A stretch of DNA of 15,481 nt from Chloroflexota bacterium (GTDB lineage Bacteria; Chloroflexota; Anaerolineae; CG2-30-64-16), in NCBI GenBank assembly GCA_029555885.1, contig JAKPQT010000412.1:1-15481 (forward strand). The letters are read 5' to 3'. Positions 2,342-14,128 of this stretch are shown here, one piece after another (the first letter of the stretch is position 1; each line of letters opens with the position of its first letter). The notes below the pieces were generated by a model, which ran no database searches, had not been told where the DNA came from, and saw only the letters and a list, made by a program, of their open reading frames with translations. A program made the translations under genes and the position numbers.

Positions 2342-3691
2342 ATGTCGACGCTCTTGCTCAAACACGCAGACCTGCTGGTGACGATGGACGCCGCGCGGCA
2401 GCGCATTCCCGATGGCGGGCTGTTCGTCCGTGACAACGAGATTGTCCAGGCCGGGCCGACCGCGGACCTGCCCGAGACCGCCGATACCGTCATTGACGCG
2501 GCCGGGATGATTGTGCTGCCCGGCCTGGTGAACACGCACCACCATCTCTGCCAGACATTGACGCGCTGCATCGCCCAGGACAACGTGCTGTTCGACTGGC
2601 TCGTAACGCTCTACCCCATCTGGGCGCGGCTGACGCCGGAGGCCGTCTATGTATCGGCCAAGTTGGGACTGGCCGAGCTGATGTTGAGCGGCTGCACGAC
2701 GTCGAGCGACCATCTGTACATCTATCCCAACGGCGTGCGGGTGGACGACGAGATTCAGGCCGCGGTCGAGCTGGGCATCCGCTTCCACGCGACCCGCGGC
2801 AGCATGAGCCTCGGCCGCAGCCAAGGCGGGCTGCCGCCGGACAACTGCGTGGAGGACGAGCCGTTCATCCTGCGGGAGAGCCGCCGCGCCATCGAGACCT
2901 ATCACCAGGCCAACCGCTTCGGCATGGTGCGCGTGGCGCTGGCGCCTTGCTCGCCTTTCACCGTCACGGCAGACATCATGCGCTCCAGCGCGGAGCTGGC
3001 GCGCGCATACGGCGTGCGGCTGCACACGCACCTGGCCGAAACGAAGGACGAGGAAGAGTTCTGCCTGGAGAGGTTCGGCGCGCGGCCGGTGGACTACGTC
3101 GCGTCGCTCGGCTGGACCGGCCCCGATGTGTGGCATGCGCACTGCGTCCACCTCAACACGGAGGAAATCAGCCTGTTTGCGACCACCGGCAGCGGCGTCG
3201 CGCACTGCCCGTCGTCCAACATGCGGCTGGCGTCGGGCATCGCGCCGGTGCGCGCCATGCGCGATGCCGGGGTGCGGGTCGGGCTGGGCGTAGATGGCTC
3301 CGCCAGCAACGACAGCAGCCACCTGCTCGCGGAGGCGCGGCAGGCCATGCTGCTCCAGCGGGTGATGGGCAACCCGAACGCACTCGGTGCGCAGGAGGCG
3401 CTGGAAATCGCCACGCTCGGCGGCGCGTCCGTGCTGGGCCGCGACGACATCGGCAGCCTCGCGGCCGGCATGGCGGCTGACTTCATCGGCTACCGGCTCG
3501 ACCGGTTGAGCTTCGCGGGCGCGCGGCACGACCCGCTGGCCGCGCTGGTCTTCTGCACCCCGCCCAACGTGGACCTGAGCGTCATCAACGGGCTGGTGCG
3601 CGTGCGCGACGGGGAGATGGTGGGGCTGGACACCCATGCGCTGACCCGCCGGCACAACGAGATCAGCCGGAAGTTGATCGACGGGGAGTGA
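2342..3691 (+). CDS. Amidohydrolase, 8-oxoguanine deaminase / ATZ-TRZ family
   Basis: A 449-residue metal-dependent hydrolase of the cytosine-deaminase-like subgroup. It has an N-terminal beta-sandwich, the metal motif NTHHHL (H66 and H68), LHTHLAE (H228, H230, with catalytic E233), HAHCVH (H265/H267) and the metal Asp in GVDGSASND (D318). The SASNDSSHLLAEAR segment (320-333), the helix after it and the overall length resemble proteins annotated as 8-oxoguanine deaminase or hydroxydechloroatrazine ethylaminohydrolase. From family knowledge, the likely reaction is hydrolytic deamination of an oxidised purine or a related triazine-like heterocycle; the exact substrate is not proven. The ATG follows GGGAGG at good spacing. 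The stop overlaps a possible GTG start of the next gene, so the pair is probably co-transcribed. Confidence 0.92.
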   Translation: MSTLLLKHADLLVTMDAARQRIPDGGLFVRDNEIVQAGPTADLPETADTVIDAAGMIVLPGLVNTHHHLCQTLTRCIAQDNVLFDWLVTLYPIWARLTPEAVYVSAKLGLAELMLSGCTTSSDHLYIYPNGVRVDDEIQAAVELGIRFHATRGSMSLGRSQGGLPPDNCVEDEPFILRESRRAIETYHQANRFGMVRVALAPCSPFTVTADIMRSSAELARAYGVRLHTHLAETKDEEEFCLERFGARPVDYVASLGWTGPDVWHAHCVHLNTEEISLFATTGSGVAHCPSSNMRLASGIAPVRAMRDAGVRVGLGVDGSASNDSSHLLAEARQAMLLQRVMGNPNALGAQEALEIATLGGASVLGRDDIGSLAAGMAADFIGYRLDRLSFAGARHDPLAALVFCTPPNVDLSVINGLVRVRDGEMVGLDTHALTRRHNEISRKLIDGE

Positions 3692-4305: not shown

Positions 4306-4369
4306 ACCGCGAAGACGCAAAGACTCAGACTTTATATGCGCTTTGCGTACTTCGCGTCTTCGCGGTTCA
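4303..4369. repeat. Palindromic element C between two converging genes
   Basis: Arms TGAACCGCGAAGACG (4303-4317) and its exact inverse complement (4355-4369), 15 bp, enclose 37 bases; GCAAAG (4317-4322) and CTTTGC (4341-4346) also pair. The left arm begins with the TGA of the HD gene and the right arm, on the minus strand, begins with the TGA of the ABC-F gene, so one symmetric element ends both converging genes. It may act as a bidirectional terminator, though there is no T-run. The right arm resembles that of the element at 8114-8171. Confidence 0.75.
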
Positions 4370-6097
4370 ACGTCTCTCGATATAGTCCGAATACCCTCCG
4401 TTGACCTCCACCGCGCGGCCATCCTCCAGCGCGACGACCCGGTCCACGATGCGGTCCAGGAAGTAGCGGTCGTGCGAGATGACGAGCACAGAGCCATTGA
4501 ACTCCTCCAGCGCGGCCTCCAGCACCTCCGACGCGGGGATGTCCAGGTTGTTCGTCGGCTCATCCAGCAGCAGGAAGTTGACATCCGACAGCATCAGCCG
4601 GGCCAGTTGCAGGCGGCTGCGTTCGCCGCCGCTGAGATGGCGCACCTGTTTCTGCGTCGCCAGGTAATCGAACAGGAACCGCTGCAGCAGCGCAACGGCA
4701 TCGTCCGCGTACATAGGCCGCGCGTCGCGGATGGCATCCACCAGCGACCACTCGGGGTTGAGCGTCTCGTGGAGCTGGGCGTAATAGCCGATCTTGACGC
4801 TGGGACCGAGCTTGATGACGCCCCCGTCCAGCGCGGTATCGGTCAGCGCAGCCGCGCTCCCATTGAGCAGCGCGGCCGGCAGGTTGCCGGACTCCATCGC
4901 CGCGTTGAGAATGCAACGGAACAGCACGGACTTGCCCGCGCCGTTCGGCCCCACCAACCCCACCCGCTCGCCGTGCCACACCTGGAAGCCGATGCCGTTC
5001 AGCACCACGTTGATGTCGTCGCCGTCCGCAAACCACTTCTCCGCAGCCTGTACGTCCAGCACCTTGTTGCTGCCCCGCCAGCCGCCGAGCTCCAGCCGCA
5101 TCCGCGCCTGTTCGCCGGGCCGCTCGACCTTGTCCATGCGATCGAGCATCTTGCGCCGGTGGCGCGCCTGCCGCGCGTGGCGCTCGTTCTGCGTGAAGGC
5201 CGCGGCCTCCTCGAAGCGTTTGATGGCCGCCTCGATCTGGGTGATGCGCTTCTGTTGCGCCTTGTACATCTGCTCCTGGCGCAGCCGCGCAAGTTCCTTG
5301 CTGACGGCATAGTGTGTGTAGCTGCCCGGCCACGACGTGACCTGCCCGCGGTCGAGCTCCACGATGACGTCGACCACCTGATCCAGCAGGTAGCGGTCGT
5401 GCGAGACGATGACCACCGTGCCGGGATAGTCGCAGATGAGCTTCTCCAGCCGCTCCTTGCCCGCAAGGTCGAGGTGATTATCCGGCTCATCGAGCAGCAG
5501 CAGACCCGGCCCCCATACCAGCAGCCGGACCAGCCCCACCAGCTTCGCCTGCCCGCCGCTCAGGACATCGAGCGGCTGCTCGAACGTCTCGTCCGTCAAG
5601 CCGAGGTCGCGCAGGGTCGAGCGCACACGGTTCTCGTAGGTCAGCCCGCCGACCGCCTCGTAGCTGTGCAGCAAATGGGCGTGTTCGTCCAGCACGCGCG
5701 CGAGCCGGTTCGGCTGCTCGTACACGGCCGGGTCGCCCATCCGCGCTTCCGCGGCATCCAGCGCGCGGCGCAGCCGGGCAATCTCGGGGGAACCGGACAG
5801 CGCGGCATCGAGCACCGTACGCGGCGTGGCTGAACCATCCTGCGCATCGGCAGCAAACAACTCACCCGCATCCTGGGGCAGATACCCGGTCATCAGGTCG
5901 CGCACGCGGAAGATCGAACCGGCCTCCGGCGTCGACTGGCCGTGCAGCAGCCGCAGCAGGGTGGACTTGCCCGCGCCGTTCGGCCCGATCAGGCCGATCT
6001 TCTGCCCGGCCTGGATCTCCCAATCCAACCCGACCAGGATCGGCTTGTCGAAATAGGTGAAATGGACACCGCTCAGGTTGACCAGTACAGGAGCCAT
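4367..6097 (-). CDS. ABC-F family ATP-binding protein (ribosome-acting type)
   Basis: A 576-residue soluble protein with two ABC domains and no membrane segments. Domain 1 has Walker A GPNGAGKST (38-46), signature LSGGQ (179-183), Walker B with LLLLDEPDNHLD (199-210) and SHDR (232-235). A charged, helical linker follows (about 262-340), corresponding to the P-site tRNA interaction motif of ABC-F proteins. Domain 2 has GPNGAGKSV (383-391), LSGGE (488-492), DEPTNNLD (512-519) and SHDR (541-544). ABC-F proteins act on the ribosome in translation rescue or antibiotic protection. Odd points are DEPD instead of DEPT in domain 1, Val instead of Thr/Ser at the end of the second Walker A, and an extra segment of roughly 18 residues after it (about 401-425). 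The ATG at 6095-6097 has a GAGG site; the leader upstream looks like an attenuator. Confidence 0.95.
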   Translation of the reverse strand: MAPVLVNLSGVHFTYFDKPILVGLDWEIQAGQKIGLIGPNGAGKSTLLRLLHGQSTPEAGSIFRVRDLMTGYLPQDAGELFAADAQDGSATPRTVLDAALSGSPEIARLRRALDAAEARMGDPAVYEQPNRLARVLDEHAHLLHSYEAVGGLTYENRVRSTLRDLGLTDETFEQPLDVLSGGQAKLVGLVRLLVWGPGLLLLDEPDNHLDLAGKERLEKLICDYPGTVVIVSHDRYLLDQVVDVIVELDRGQVTSWPGSYTHYAVSKELARLRQEQMYKAQQKRITQIEAAIKRFEEAAAFTQNERHARQARHRRKMLDRMDKVERPGEQARMRLELGGWRGSNKVLDVQAAEKWFADGDDINVVLNGIGFQVWHGERVGLVGPNGAGKSVLFRCILNAAMESGNLPAALLNGSAAALTDTALDGGVIKLGPSVKIGYYAQLHETLNPEWSLVDAIRDARPMYADDAVALLQRFLFDYLATQKQVRHLSGGERSRLQLARLMLSDVNFLLLDEPTNNLDIPASEVLEAALEEFNGSVLVISHDRYFLDRIVDRVVALEDGRAVEVNGGYSDYIERR

Positions 6098-6112
6098 GAC
6101 AATCCTCGTCAG

Positions 6113-6148
6113 AAAACAAAAAGGCCGCAGGCGATTGCGCCCACGGCC
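6113..6148 (-). terminator. Terminator-like hairpin 2 in the ABC-F leader
   Basis: On the minus strand GGCCGTGGGCG (6148-6138), loop CAAT and CGCCTGCGGCC (6133-6123) form an 11-bp stem (9 Watson-Crick, 2 G-U), followed at once by TTTTTGTTTT (6122-6113). This is a canonical intrinsic terminator placed only 15 bases upstream of the ABC-F start codon. No coding gene lies upstream on this strand that it could serve, apart from the short leader ORF, so attenuation is the natural reading. Confidence 0.75.
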
Positions 6149-6164
6149 AAAGATTACGTAAAGC

Positions 6165-6205
6165 AAACGAAAAATGGGCGCGTTGAACTAGGTCAACACC
6201 GCCCA
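6165..6205 (-). terminator. Terminator-like hairpin 1 in the ABC-F leader
   Basis: On the minus strand TGGGCG (6205-6200) pairs with CGCCCA (6180-6175), and GTTGA (6197-6193) pairs with TCAAC (6186-6182), with a 2x1 internal loop and the terminal loop CCTAGT. TTTTTCGTTT (6174-6165) follows. The loop contains the TAG stop codon of the leader ORF. The 3' strand GCGCCCA (6181-6175) can instead pair with TGGGCGC (6143-6137), the 5' strand of hairpin 2. Confidence 0.6.
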
Positions 6206-6259
6206 CGAAGGAGTGCACAGCACAGGTAGCAGGGTCGAACCCAGGCGAATGAACAACAT
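6188..6259 (-). CDS. Candidate leader peptide of the ABC-F gene (23 aa)
   Basis: A 23-codon ORF beginning MLFIRLGSTLL and ending CTPSWAVLT, then TAG. It has no Shine-Dalgarno, but its ATG coincides with the position predicted for transcription start (+1 at about 6259-6260) from the promoter at 6267-6294, so it would be translated as a leaderless message. Its last codons (Trp-Ala-Val-Leu-Thr) form the 5' arm of hairpin 1 and its stop lies in the hairpin loop. That geometry fits a regulatory leader peptide whose translation decides RNA folding. Whether it is translated cannot be known from sequence; 23 codons can arise by chance. Confidence 0.45.
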   Translation of the reverse strand: MLFIRLGSTLLPVLCTPSWAVLT

Positions 6260-6266
6260 GGCAGGT

Positions 6267-6294
6267 AGTATACTCACGCGGCCACCGATGTCAA
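6267..6294 (-). promoter_or_regulatory. Strong sigma-70 promoter for the ABC-F transcript
   Basis: On the minus strand TTGACA (6294-6289), a 16-base spacer and TATACT (6272-6267). The -35 is perfect and the -10 matches 5 of 6. Predicted start at about 6259-6260 gives a leader of roughly 160 bases before the ABC-F ATG. Confidence 0.7.
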
Positions 6295-6515: not shown

Positions 6516-7217
6516 ATGAGTTTGGATGATCTGCTTCAATCGATCCTGGGGGGCGGAAACGCAGGGCAGCGGCGCAGCACAGAGAACGCCAGCAGCGGCG
6601 ATCCGATGGCGGATATGCTGGATGCCATCCTGGGTGGCGGTTCGGCCTCGCAGCAGGGCGGCGGCCTGGAAGACATCCTGGGCGGGATGCTCGGCGGCGG
6701 AGTCGCTGGCAGCGAGTCCCTGCCGCAATCGTCCGGCCAGGCCGGCGCGGGCGGACTGATGGATATCATTTCAGCCATTCTCAACGGCTCGGCGGGCGGC
6801 GCAGCCCAGGAACAGAGCACCTCTATCATCGAGGGCGTCTCCGGGAAGACGGGCCTGTCGCAGATGCTGATCCAGTTGGTCCTCTCCTTTGTGATGAGCA
6901 AGCTGCTGGGCGGCATGACAGGGGGCGGGTCTGGTATGGGCGGTCTGCTGCCCGGAATGGAAAGCGGGGCGACTTCGTCTCAGGGTCGAGTGCAGCCCTC
7001 AGGTGGCGGTCTCGACCTGGACAGCCTCCTGGAGCAGATGGGCCAGGATCCCCGCGTCGCCGATGAGTTCGCAGAGAAGGCCGGCCTCGACAGGGACACG
7101 GCCCAACAGAGCCTGCAGGAAGTCCTCGGCGCGCTCAACCAGCAGCGCCGCAGCGGGGACGCCGGTACCGGCCGGCCCAAGACGGGCGGCATGGATGACC
7201 TGTTGCTGAACCGGTAG
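6516..7217 (+). CDS. Glycine-rich repeat protein, DUF937/YidB-like
   Basis: A 233-residue, low-complexity protein. An approximate repeat of a short amphipathic helix followed by a glycine run recurs: DDLLQSILGGG (4-14), ADMLDAILGGG (32-42), LEDILGGMLGGG (51-62), LMDIISAILNGS (81-92) and MSKLLGGMTGGG (127-138). A hydrophobic segment lies at about 114-131. The C-terminal part (about 164-210) has a more normal helical sequence with DPRVADEFAEKAGLDRDTA, and the protein ends MDDLLLNR, echoing its N-terminus. The style resembles the poorly characterised DUF937/YidB proteins; membership is a guess and the function is unknown. There is no signal peptide. The ATG follows AAAGGGG. The gene is alone, with its own candidate promoter and a clear terminator. 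Confidence 0.8.
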   Translation: MSLDDLLQSILGGGNAGQRRSTENASSGDPMADMLDAILGGGSASQQGGGLEDILGGMLGGGVAGSESLPQSSGQAGAGGLMDIISAILNGSAGGAAQEQSTSIIEGVSGKTGLSQMLIQLVLSFVMSKLLGGMTGGGSGMGGLLPGMESGATSSQGRVQPSGGGLDLDSLLEQMGQDPRVADEFAEKAGLDRDTAQQSLQEVLGALNQQRRSGDAGTGRPKTGGMDDLLLNR

Positions 7218-7391: not shown

Positions 7392-8108
7392 ATGCGAACC
7401 ACAAATCAAGTAAATACAAATCCAGAGCAAGAAATTGAAAGGCTGCGCAGGACTCTCTTGCGCCCACTGCCCGGTCTGCCTGTGCAGATGGGCATGTCGC
7501 CCGCGCCGCGGCCGGGTACCGAGCGGATCCTCGACCCCCACCTGAATTGCCGGCGTGCAGGCGTGCTAGTGCTGCTGTACCCAGGTGATACCGAGGCATC
7601 GCTGCACCTGGTGCTGACCCGACGCACCAATTCGGTCGAGAGCCATCGCGGGCAGATTTCATTTCCCGGCGGCAGCATGGACCCGGGCGAAGATGCAATC
7701 GCGGCGGCCCTCCGCGAAGCACAGGAGGAACTGGGCGTCGACCCTGCCAGCGTGACCGTCCTCGGCCAGCTCTCGCCGCTGTACATTCCGCCGAGCGACT
7801 TCTGCATCTACCCCGTGGTTGCATTTGCAACCGCGCGACCGGCATTTGTTCCCAGCCCGCACGAGGTGGCGGAGGTATTGGAGGTCCCGCTGGCGCACCT
7901 GCTCAACCCGGCGACGCGCTGCGAGGAGGTCTGGGATATCCGCGGTGCGCCTGTGCGCGTGCCCTATTACGCGTTCGGCGAGCACAAGGTTTGGGGCGCC
8001 ACGGCTATGGTACTGTGCGAGCTGCTGGCGCTGCTGACCGGCGCGGTAGATGGACTGCCCAGCGCAGACGGCATCGCATCCGCACACGACCCGCGTCTTA
8101 CGGATTAA
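7392..8108 (+). CDS. Nudix hydrolase, CoA pyrophosphatase type (NudL/NUDT7-like)
   Basis: A 238-residue protein. A complete Nudix box spans 94-116: G94, E100, then REAQEELGV (108-116), matching Gx5Ex7REUxEExGU. Directly before it, LTRRTNSVESHRGQISFPGG (75-94) is the extra motif that marks the coenzyme A pyrophosphatase branch. The N-terminal IERLRRTLLRPLPG is also typical of that branch. The family cleaves CoA or oxidised CoA to phosphopantetheine and 3',5'-ADP using Mg2+ held by the box glutamates. No clear Shine-Dalgarno precedes the ATG at 7392, and the first codons are A-rich, unlike the rest of the gene; a shorter start in the M33-M35 region is possible but would cut the conserved N-terminal helix. 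The C-terminal 20 residues look disordered. Confidence 0.9.
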   Translation: MRTTNQVNTNPEQEIERLRRTLLRPLPGLPVQMGMSPAPRPGTERILDPHLNCRRAGVLVLLYPGDTEASLHLVLTRRTNSVESHRGQISFPGGSMDPGEDAIAAALREAQEELGVDPASVTVLGQLSPLYIPPSDFCIYPVVAFATARPAFVPSPHEVAEVLEVPLAHLLNPATRCEEVWDIRGAPVRVPYYAFGEHKVWGATAMVLCELLALLTGAVDGLPSADGIASAHDPRLTD

Positions 8109-12601: not shown

Positions 12602-14128
12602 ATGACTACGATCACTGTCCAAAACCCATCCGAGGTGCGGCCGCGCGCGGCCATGCGTGAGTCGTCCCGGTCGTATGCCACCGTCATCCTGCTGCTGATC
12701 CTGGTCGCCGCGAGCGCGCTGCGCTTCTATCGACTGGGCGAGGGCCTGTGGCTGGACGAAATCATCACCGATTACGAATACGTGCGCCTGCCATATCACG
12801 AGATCATCACGACGTACGACTCAGAGAACCAGCACTTCCTGTACACGCTCATAGCGCGGGCAGCCTATGACCTCTTCGGTCCCAGCCCGTGGGCGCTGCG
12901 GCTGCCCGCGGCCCTGTTCGGCATCGGGAGCCTCACGGCCCTGTATTTCCTGGCGCGACGCGTCACGAGCGTCTCGGAAGGGCTGCTGGCAACTGCGCTG
13001 CTGGCCTTCTCCTATCATCACATCTGGTTCAGCCAGAATGCACGCGGCTATTCGGGCCTGCTGTTCTGGACGCTGCTCTCCAGTTGGACGCTGTTGGCCG
13101 CGCTCCAGACGGGCCGCATCCGGTACTGGCTGGCCTTTGCGGCGGCAGGCGCGCTCGGCCTTTACACCCACATGACGATGGTCTTCGTGGTATTCGGGCA
13201 GGCCGCGGTGGCGGCGCTCTGGCTGTTCAACCAACGCGCCGAGGCCGCCGCGCTGCTTCGCGGCATGCTGCTCGGTTTCAGCGGCGCGGCCGGTCTGAGC
13301 CTGCTGCTCTATGCGCCGGTGCTGCCTCACCTGCTCCGGGGGCTGGGGCGTGAGCCGAGCGTCGTCGGGGAATGGAAGAGCCCGCTGTGGACGTTGAGCG
13401 AACTGCTGCGGGGCCTGAACATCGGGTTTGCGGGCGGCCTCGCTGCACTGGTCGCGCTCGTCGTCGTCGCGGCCGGGCTGTTAAGCTATCTCCGGCGGCA
13501 ACCTGCAATCGTCGTGCTGCTCGGCGTGCCGGTGCTGGCAGGTGCGCTGGTCGTCATCGGTATGGGGCATCACCTCTGGCCGCGGTTCTTCTACTTCGCC
13601 TTCGGCTTCGGCGCCCTGGTCCTGGTGCGAGGGGCCTTCCTGACCGGCCAATGGATCACCGGCTGGCTCGCCCGGCAGCGTCCTGGTCGGCTGGCCGTTA
13701 ACCCCGCCTGGGGTGGGGTTGCCGTCTGCCTGGTGTTGATCGTCGCGGCGGCCGCCTCCACACCCAAGGTTTACGGACCCAAGCAGGATTACGAAGGGGC
13801 CATGGCTTTCGTTACAGAGCAGCGCCAGCCCGGGGATGCGGTTGTGACCGCAAGCATCGCGGCGCTGCCCTACAAGAACTACTTTCACACCGATTGGCAA
13901 GTCATCGAGGACGTCGCCGTCCTGAATGCAACGCGCGACAGCGCCGCCCGCACCTGGTTTGTCTATACGTTCCCGCCCGTCCTCCAGGCCGTCCTGCCTG
14001 AGGTGATGGCCAGCCTCAATCGAGACTTTGAAGAGGTAGCCCGCTTTGAGGGCACGGTCAGCGGCGGGACGATCTACGTGCTCCGTGCGGACAAAAGTTC
14101 ACTCGCATCTGCAAGTAACGCAAGGTAG
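12602..14128 (+). CDS. GT-C membrane glycosyltransferase (PMT/ArnT-like)
   Basis: A 508-residue polytopic membrane protein with around ten hydrophobic helices from residue 26 on, followed by a soluble C-terminal part (about 390-508). The first extracytoplasmic loop starts GLWLDEI with the acidic pair D52-E53, the catalytic hallmark of GT-C enzymes. ENQHFLYTL (75-83), ALRLPAALFG (98-107) and WFSQNARGYSGLLF (142-155) follow, as in the PMT_2 (dolichyl-phosphate mannosyltransferase-like) family. Such enzymes use polyprenyl-phosphate sugars on the outer face of the membrane. The ATG lies 36 bases after the previous gene; its ribosome site is weak. The next gene, a polyprenyl-phosphate sugar synthase type, would supply the donor. 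Confidence 0.92.
   Translation: MTTITVQNPSEVRPRAAMRESSRSYATVILLLILVAASALRFYRLGEGLWLDEIITDYEYVRLPYHEIITTYDSENQHFLYTLIARAAYDLFGPSPWALRLPAALFGIGSLTALYFLARRVTSVSEGLLATALLAFSYHHIWFSQNARGYSGLLFWTLLSSWTLLAALQTGRIRYWLAFAAAGALGLYTHMTMVFVVFGQAAVAALWLFNQRAEAAALLRGMLLGFSGAAGLSLLLYAPVLPHLLRGLGREPSVVGEWKSPLWTLSELLRGLNIGFAGGLAALVALVVVAAGLLSYLRRQPAIVVLLGVPVLAGALVVIGMGHHLWPRFFYFAFGFGALVLVRGAFLTGQWITGWLARQRPGRLAVNPAWGGVAVCLVLIVAAAASTPKVYGPKQDYEGAMAFVTEQRQPGDAVVTASIAALPYKNYFHTDWQVIEDVAVLNATRDSAARTWFVYTFPPVLQAVLPEVMASLNRDFEEVARFEGTVSGGTIYVLRADKSSLASASNAR

What the first reader, a model, noticed from the sequence alone, without database searches (positions are those of the whole stretch)
6098..6294. Putative translation-sensing transcription attenuator controlling an ABC-F gene
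The leader between a consensus promoter (6267-6294) and the ABC-F ATG (6097) holds, on the minus strand, a 23-codon ORF and two terminator-like hairpins, each followed by a T-run (6165-6205 and 6113-6148). The 3' strand of hairpin 1 (GCGCCCA, 6181-6175) is exactly complementary to the 5' strand of hairpin 2 (TGGGCGC, 6143-6137), so the structures exclude each other. The ORF's last codons form the 5' arm of hairpin 1 and its stop sits in the loop. A ribosome stalled near the Ser-Trp codons would mask the 5' arm, free the 3' arm and break the second terminator, allowing ABC-F expression. ABC-F genes that answer ribosome-targeting drugs are known to use attenuators of this general kind; this sequence arrangement is one I do not recognise.
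Basis: partly seen in the sequence, partly recalled or inferred. Interest (0 to 1): 0.85.

Follow-up and report, generated by a model that had tools for sequence, protein, structure and literature searches.

The report
Leader-peptide attenuator before ABC-F gene
A tiny translated leader ahead of a ribosome-protection-like gene looks like an RNA switch that turns the gene on only when a ribosome stalls inside the leader, and similar switches with different sensor peptides stand before related genes in many Chloroflexota genomes.

Summary
Before an ABC-F gene the window (a Chloroflexota relative) has a consensus promoter, a 23-codon ORF, a hairpin over the ORF's end, and a strong terminator whose 5' arm is complementary to the hairpin's 3' arm. 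A leader of this plan stands before at least 55 of 96 related ABC-F genes read (window included). In 54 of them, both alternative pairings are better matched within a leader than between leaders (0 of 10,000 and 0 of 20,000 permutations; 489 of 20,000 when exchanged only within a peptide class). The ORFs evolve as peptides; conservation peaks at codons 17-19, where a stalled ribosome would cover arm 1 and leave arm 2 free. Corrections: (1) in 38 of 55 leaders the ATG lies 4-9 nt after a -10 box, so the ORF is probably leaderless; (2) hairpin 1 acts as anti-antiterminator, its T-run being nearly private to the window; (3) the window's motif (VLCTPSW) departs from its sisters' LPRIASW. Ribosome-mediated attenuation of ABC-F genes is known; I found no description of this Chloroflexota version in the library searched. 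Start site, stalling and trigger are untested.

The parts
6267..6294 (-). sigma-70-type promoter: TTGACA (6294-6289), 16-nt spacer, TATACT (6272-6267)
   Evidence: TTGACA and TATACT are invariant in the four sister leaders, spacer 17-18 there
6188..6259 (-). uORF MLFIRLGSTLLPVLCTPSWAVLT, ATG 7 nt after the -10 box (probably leaderless), stop TAG 6190-6188
   Evidence: start is predicted, not mapped
6203..6223 (-). codons 13-19 (VLCTPSW), the position of the conserved motif LPRIASW in the sister leaders; predicted stall site
6200..6206 (-). strand 1: 5' arm of hairpin 1
   Evidence: strand 1 x strand 2 permutation test
6174..6181 (-). strand 2 (GCGCCCAT): 3' arm of hairpin 1 and antiterminator arm
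6170..6174 (-). T5 run after hairpin 1, not conserved in relatives
6154..6160 (-). TACGTAA: conserved element of unknown role, [TC]A[TC]GT[ACT]A at a near-fixed place in other leaders
   Evidence: 29 of 54 leaders
6137..6144 (-). strand 3 (GTGGGCGC) within the terminator 5' arm; partner of strand 2
6113..6148 (-). intrinsic terminator: 11-pair stem 6148-6123 and T-tract
4367..6097 (-). ABC-F protein, 576 aa, ATG 6097
   Evidence: NF000355.4 ribosomal protection-like ABC-F, 387.8 bits, cut-off 380; ATG agrees with orthologues

Best explanation
A ribosome-mediated transcription attenuator for the ABC-F gene. Transcription starts at or next to the uORF ATG, so the uORF is read as a leaderless mRNA. 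Untranslated, strand 1 pairs with strand 2 and the terminator (3:4) forms; translated to the stop, the ribosome covers strand 2 and the terminator also forms. If a ribosome stalls with its P site at about codons 15-21, it covers strand 1 and leaves strand 2 free; strand 2 captures strand 3 as that is made, the terminator fails, and the ABC-F gene is transcribed. The stall depends on the nascent peptide and most likely on a ribosome-targeting drug that the ABC-F protein relieves (I give the drug step alone about 0.55). Shown by comparison: conserved layout, matched pairings, selection on the peptide. Inferred: leaderless start, stalling, antitermination in the cell, the trigger, a resistance role of this ABC-F.
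For: Same leader before all four closest orthologues with readable upstream DNA. Leaders curated by eye before 55 of 96 ABC-F genes. Strong terminator within 350 nt: 56 of 96 against 3 of 88 non-overlapping other ORFs of Chloroflexota loci, 12 of 310 ORFs of all loci and 0.35 on average in 20 shuffles; leaderless uORF plus terminator: 28 of 96, 0 of 88, 0 of 310 and 0. Strand 2 x strand 3: matched -14.53, permuted -12.98 kcal/mol, 0 of 20,000; within class 489 of 20,000; seven other windows z between -0.54 and +3.99. Strand 1 (nt 50-72) x strand 2: z -4.39, 0 of 10,000. uORF frame has the lowest pN/pS of the three frames in 8 of 8 classes. Four sister leaders: codons 13-19 differ 3, 0, 16 times at codon positions 1, 2, 3, codons 2-12 41, 25, 40 times. 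Identity peaks at codons 17-19.
Against: No transcript, ribosome-profiling or reporter data. 41 of 96 upstream regions gave no recognised leader. In the window the terminator (-21.9) is more stable than the antiterminator (-15.9 kcal/mol), and the antiterminator is the stronger in only 11 of 54 leaders, so the switch must be kinetic. In the window's own class the 2:3 helix shows no two-sided change. A wider strand-2 window gave a weaker test (36 of 10,000; within class 2518 of 10,000). Two early windows (nt 0-22, 10-32) also match strand 2 at z -2.6. Peptide classes were grouped partly by peptide likeness, which favours low pN. The window's own uORF lacks LPRIA. The permutations ignore relatedness.
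Confidence: 0.8

Rival explanations
1. The uORF is an intrinsic arrest peptide that the ABC-F protein itself resolves: when ABC-F activity is low the ribosome pauses, the terminator is bypassed and more ABC-F is made. The RNA switch is the same; the trigger is the protein's own activity and no drug is needed.
For: uORF likeness follows ABC-F likeness (r 0.75). The ABC-F is not in a named resistance family; the nearest solved chains are EttA, Uup, ExpZ and YheS. Precedents, passages seen: ectopic MsrD suppresses induction through its own leader, EttA acts on the leader peptide MgtL. Window and its relative L090 share a changed linker (EEAAAFT), and the window's uORF is the outlier of its class.
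Against: After allowing for the rest of the protein, the linker does not predict the uORF (partial correlation 0.04, 338 of 2000 permutations as high). L090 has no readable leader. Shared phylogeny alone explains the correlation.
Confidence: 0.25
2. Amino-acid starvation sensor of the trp kind: stalling at hungry codons of the uORF (for example the Trp codon) switches the ABC-F gene on.
For: Trp codon 19 is kept in all five leaders of the window's class and the three-strand plan equals that of amino-acid attenuators.
Against: The TGG also forms part of strand 1. The eight classes share no amino acid at codons 13-19. No run of one amino acid in the window's uORF. The controlled gene is not a biosynthesis gene.
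Confidence: 0.06
3. A terminator of an upstream transcript or an insulating element, with the uORF and pairings incidental.
For: Strong intrinsic terminators end many genes; hairpin and T-tract are present.
Against: The next ORF upstream in the window (6516-7217) is on the plus strand, and the terminator lies downstream of the leader's own promoter. Matched pairings and peptide constraint.
Confidence: 0.04
4. A ligand- or protein-binding leader (riboswitch-like) in which the uORF is not needed.
For: A [TC]A[TC]GT[ACT]A element of unknown role in 29 of 54 leaders.
Against: No Rfam family reaches its gathering score in the window; no further conserved core noticed; the uORF is constrained as a peptide.
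Confidence: 0.04

Closest known systems
vmlR leader of Bacillus subtilis (PMC9226507; passages seen)
   Same: ABC-F gene; uORF within an anti-antiterminator hairpin; antiterminator / terminator choice; induction by drug stalling
   Different: Three-codon uORF (MIN) with Shine-Dalgarno sequence, stall at initiation; no long conserved peptide
are5sc and tiaA leaders of Streptomyces (PMC12421871; passages seen)
   Same: ABC-F genes with uORF and terminator / antiterminator leaders
   Different: uORFs MLV and MVGDDDISG, stall at the start codon
msrD leader MsrDL (PMC10314930; passages seen)
   Same: ABC-F gene; nascent peptide matters; intrinsic terminator; MsrD acts back on its own leader
   Different: Six-residue MYLIFM, stall at the stop codon; streptococcal; no match to the Chloroflexota motifs
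Leaderless leader peptides: peTrpL of Sinorhizobium (passages), ilvBNC of Corynebacterium (passages), polycysteine ORFs of mycobacteria (title in a reference list)
   Same: uORF at or near the 5' end of the transcript in an attenuator
   Different: The named systems sense amino acids and control metabolic genes (trp, ilv, cysteine)

Membership tests
Ribosome-mediated transcription attenuator (trp / vmlR kind) | uORF overlapping the first of mutually exclusive hairpins | tested here: met
Ribosome-mediated transcription attenuator (trp / vmlR kind) | Antiterminator pairing conserved against the terminator across relatives | tested here: met
   0 of 20,000 overall, 489 of 20,000 within class; but no two-sided change within the window's own class
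Ribosome-mediated transcription attenuator (trp / vmlR kind) | Intrinsic terminator between uORF and gene | tested here: met
Ribosome-mediated transcription attenuator (trp / vmlR kind) | uORF is translated and evolves as a peptide | tested here: met
   selection on the peptide; translation itself not testable here
Ribosome-mediated transcription attenuator (trp / vmlR kind) | Stalling changes read-through in the cell | not testable with these tools
   needs reporter or RNA-seq
Leaderless uORF | Transcript starts at the start codon | tested here: inconclusive
   -10 to ATG spacing 4-9 nt in 38 of 55 leaders, 12 Shine-Dalgarno led, 5 unassigned; start not mapped
Antibiotic-resistance ABC-F (named NCBIfam families) | Score above the cut-off of a named resistance family (Msr, Vga, Lsa, Sal, OptrA, TlrC/CarA kind) | tested here: not met
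   only the general NF000355.4 passes (387.8 against 380)
Antibiotic-resistance ABC-F (named NCBIfam families) | Confers resistance | not testable with these tools
   no assay
Known Rfam leader family | Match at gathering score | tested here: not met
   0 matches in the window

The most novel reading that the evidence does not exclude
A family of modular attenuators spread through Chloroflexota: one RNA chassis (mostly leaderless start, strand 2 at a near-fixed distance from the ATG, a [TC]A[TC]GT[ACT]A element, terminator) carrying interchangeable arrest peptides of at least eight classes, each belonging with its own ABC-F lineage, so that the peptide reports the very stall, by drug or intrinsic, that this ABC-F resolves.
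Probability: 0.3. Interest if true: 0.78.

Novelty: new variant of a known kind. Interest (0 to 1): 0.58.

Why it matters
ABC-F proteins free ribosomes stalled by drugs or by difficult sequences, and their leaders tell what they answer to. The ABC-F leaders I read about have uORFs of 3-9 codons with a stall at the start or stop codon. Here a largely uncultured phylum shows uORFs of 20-36 codons, mostly leaderless, with conserved internal motifs in at least eight classes. If they stall, they are a set of new natural arrest peptides, each paired with the ABC-F gene it controls, and directly testable by toeprinting and reporters; they would also tell what these ABC-F proteins, which belong to no named resistance family, are for.

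Tried and rejected
Hairpin 1 as a conserved second terminator: rejected, 5 or more T follow in 2 of 54 leaders. Known RNA family: none at gathering score in the window. A tRNA-like element suggested by GTTCAACGCGCCCA: ARAGORN finds no tRNA. Linker-specific co-evolution of ABC-F and uORF: not supported. The wide strand-2 window gave 36 of 10,000 overall and 2518 of 10,000 within class; I then narrowed it to where the pairing was seen, a choice made on the same data. The leaderless-plus-terminator criterion was set after seeing these leaders. The motif pattern hit 14 of 396 genomes at 15 places: 4 are the known sister leaders, the other 11 were not followed; the backward control hit 2. The RNA model in 10 genomes (150 candidates scored per genome) gave 18 places: the 4 leaders it was built on, G070 (E 3e-22), and 13 with E of 0.018 or more; of the 13 I looked at L202-L205: only L203 stands by an ABC-F gene.

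Rows dropped: L090, L161 (contig ends) had no upstream; L086 (distant ABC-F) left out of the 96; L114 left out of the 54 (no terminator by my score); class GVVS left out of the codon profile (register shifts); L169 left out (protein not fetched), L108 added there. The control used ORFs of 119 loci of several phyla, some of them perhaps antisense; one search repeats it on 88 non-overlapping ORFs of 49 Chloroflexota loci. 55 of 96 is a lower bound: L155 counted as without leader, but the longer stretch L239 of the same genome shows one. Five further ABC-F genes (L236, L238, L240-L242) were read once and are in no count.

Full report
WHAT IS THERE. On the minus strand the window has TTGACA-16-TATACT (6294-6267), an ATG with 7 nt between it and the -10 box (6259), a 23-codon ORF ending in TAG (6190-6188), a hairpin over the end of that ORF, and an 11-pair terminator hairpin with a T-tract (6148-6113), before the ABC-F ATG at 6097. 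The fold is better than most shuffles (z -2.30, 5 of 200 as good). The longest ORF listed for the ABC-F begins at a TTG at 6166, but alignment with orthologues supports the ATG at 6097.

WHERE IT COMES FROM. No genome is held for the window. In the class that holds one of them, 92 of 396 genomes, drawn from a larger group, have an ABC-F match at E 1e-130 or better. The five best (69-77% identical) lie in one order, of which 10 genomes are held. In a draw of 400 genomes of the phylum, 19 have a match at E 1e-140.

THE LEADER IS CONSERVED. Four of those five orthologues have readable upstream DNA, and all four have the leader: promoter, ATG 6 nt after the -10 box, 23 codons to TAG (in L094 the stop reads TGG and the ORF runs to 30 codons), hairpin, terminator. 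The fifth contig is cut off before the leader. A covariance model of the five leaders finds one more in the order, in G070 (E 3e-22): promoter-like boxes and a uORF with LPRSASW; in the 1.5 kb on either side (172 bases masked) no ABC-F match was found, and I could not recognise the terminator by eye, so it looks like a relic. Of 51 sources searched with the model (the window included, the four sisters not), 25 have a match at E 0.01 or better (positions not checked one by one). I read the upstream regions that I had fetched: 55 of 96, window included, have a leader that I recognised by promoter, uORF and terminator. A strong terminator within 350 nt stands in 56 of 96, against 3 of 88 other ORFs of Chloroflexota loci, 12 of 310 ORFs of all loci, and 0.35 on average in 20 shuffles. 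A leaderless uORF with a terminator at the right distance stands in 28 of 96, 0 of 88, 0 of 310 and 0; the criterion was set after seeing the leaders.

THE THREE-STRAND SWITCH. For 54 leaders I paired nt 73-95 from the uORF ATG (strand 2) with the terminator 5' arm (strand 3) of the same or of another leader: -14.53 against -12.98 kcal/mol, 0 of 20,000 permutations as good; when only leaders of one peptide class are exchanged, 489 of 20,000. Seven other windows show no excess of matched pairing (z -0.54 to +3.99). A first version with a wider strand-2 window gave 36 of 10,000 and, within class, 2518 of 10,000. Strand 1 (nt 50-72) with strand 2 gives z -4.39, 0 of 10,000; two early windows gave z -2.6, 55 of 10,000 each. 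The permutations do not allow for relatedness, apart from the within-class one. Examples of different but matched 2:3 pairs: GCGCCCAT/GTGGGCGC (window), GCCTCGG/CCGAGGC (L104), TGCCCCG/CGGGGCA (L113), GTGCCT/GGGCAC (L106). In the window's own class of five, the two hairpins pair in 97.4% of cells with three pairs changed on both sides (18 of 500 shuffles as high); the 2:3 helix pairs in 95% of cells but has no two-sided change, so the class alone says nothing on covariation there. A T-run of 5 or more follows hairpin 1 in 2 of 54 leaders, so hairpin 1 is best read as the anti-antiterminator.

THE PEPTIDE. I grouped 45 of the 55 uORFs in eight classes by motif (my labels: PRIASW, LLAS, RTSSLGC, RPLFLGS, RGF, MTSV, GVVS, IQTS). 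In 8 of 8 classes the uORF frame has the lowest pN/pS of the three frames (0.17-0.84); the grouping by peptide favours this. The four sisters of the window, chosen by their ABC-F and not by the peptide, are the cleaner test: codons 13-19 differ 3, 0 and 16 times at codon positions 1, 2 and 3, and codons 2-12 differ 41, 25 and 40 times. LPRIASW is held as a peptide; the rest hardly at all. Over seven classes, identity is 0.75, 0.72 and 0.77 at codons 17-19 and 0.39 at codon 20; codons 24, 27 and 28 (fewer sequences, overlapping strand 2) again reach 0.64-0.70. The window has VLCTPSW there and keeps only Ser-Trp. Its ABC-F also differs from those of the sisters in the linker which, from recalled knowledge of ABC-F structures, faces the P-site tRNA: EEAAAFT for ELWASIV or ELWASLV. 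Over 55 leaders, however, the uORF follows the ABC-F as a whole (r 0.75), and the linker adds nothing detectable (partial 0.04, 338 of 2000).

LEADERLESS START. In 38 of 55 leaders the ATG lies 4-9 nt after a -10 box, mostly 6 or 7, which is where a transcript is expected to start (recalled); 12 are Shine-Dalgarno led, among them 8 of 9 of class GVVS; 5 are unassigned, four of which show by eye a weaker TAnnnT box 6-7 nt before the ATG. Leaderless genes were predicted in 4 of 12 Chloroflexi genomes (table of PMC3160421, passages seen). No mapped start is available here.

HOW IT SHOULD WORK. Taking the ribosome's front edge at about 16 nt from the first base of the P codon (recalled; a 30S toeprint 16 nt from the start codon is in PMC9226507), a ribosome with P-site codon 15-21 covers strand 1 (nt 54-60) and leaves strand 2 (from nt 79) free. 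The conserved codons lie where such a stall would be made. In the 41 of 54 leaders whose best 2:3 duplex falls at nt 70-90, strand 2 starts at nt 78.2 +/- 2.6, while the stop codon ranges from 60 to 108 (sd 11.4) over the 54: the geometry appears to be set from the stall site and not from the stop. In the window the terminator is more stable than the antiterminator (-21.9 against -15.9 kcal/mol), and the antiterminator is the stronger in only 11 of 54, so order of synthesis must decide. The [TC]A[TC]GT[ACT]A element after strand 2 (29 of 54, 27 of them starting at nt 98-103; 2.2 on average in 200 shuffles) might be a polymerase pause site; this is a guess.

TRIGGER. Not known. Drug-dependent stalling is the likeliest by analogy with vmlR, are5sc / tiaA and msrD (passages seen). 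But only the general ABC-F ribosome-protection model passes its cut-off, and the nearest solved chains are EttA, Uup, ExpZ and YheS. ABC-F proteins of group ARE4a have been reported in Chloroflexi (table of PMC6723617, passage seen); I could not test whether this one belongs there. Feedback on the ABC-F's own activity is therefore a serious rival.

IN PRINT. The searches were: ABC-F, transcription attenuation, leader peptide, uORF, at least three (25 papers, 20 listed); ABC-F with Chloroflexi and attenuation (1); leaderless, attenuat-, leader peptide, antibiotic resistance, ABCF, at least four (37, 20 listed); leaderless with Chloroflexi and translation initiation (8); ABCF with Chloroflexi and ribosome (1); leaderless with uORF, attenuation and antibiotic (12); Chloroflexota, leader peptide, terminator, at least two (399, 10 listed). 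None of the listed titles and abstracts describes this leader; of 11 papers I saw passages. The library lacks most subscription papers and preprints. ABC-F attenuators are known and leaderless leader peptides are known; their combination and its spread in Chloroflexota I did not find.

Noticed in passing
window 6160-6154; nt 98-109 from the uORF ATG in other leaders: A [TC]A[TC]GT[ACT]A element between strand 2 and the terminator in 29 of 54 leaders, 27 of them at a near-fixed place; role unknown.
   Followed up: partly
L198 (G070:C32:2407-2546, minus): A leader of the window's class (uORF with LPRSASW) without a recognisable ABC-F gene in the 1.5 kb on either side: probably a relic.
   Followed up: partly
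L203 (G199:C52, near 13857-14030, minus): A second ABC-F gene in G199 has its own leader with a seven-codon ORF (MTNTITV), GCGCCTGC upstream and a terminator with GTAGGCGCGC: same plan, other sensor (read by eye).
   Followed up: partly
window 4367-6097 (linker) and L090: The ABC-F linker tip is EEAAAFT in the window and in G209 (L090), ELWASIV/ELWASLV in the other four close orthologues; G209's leader is off its contig.
   Followed up: partly
L103, L105, L108 and L127, upstream of ABC-F: Two terminator-like hairpins in tandem before the ABC-F gene (for L127).
   Followed up: no
window 2342-3691 (+) and 7392-8108 (+): An 8-oxoguanine deaminase (NF006055.0, 698.8 bits, cut-off 532) and a Nudix hydrolase nearest to CoA pyrophosphatase but below cut-off.
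   Followed up: no
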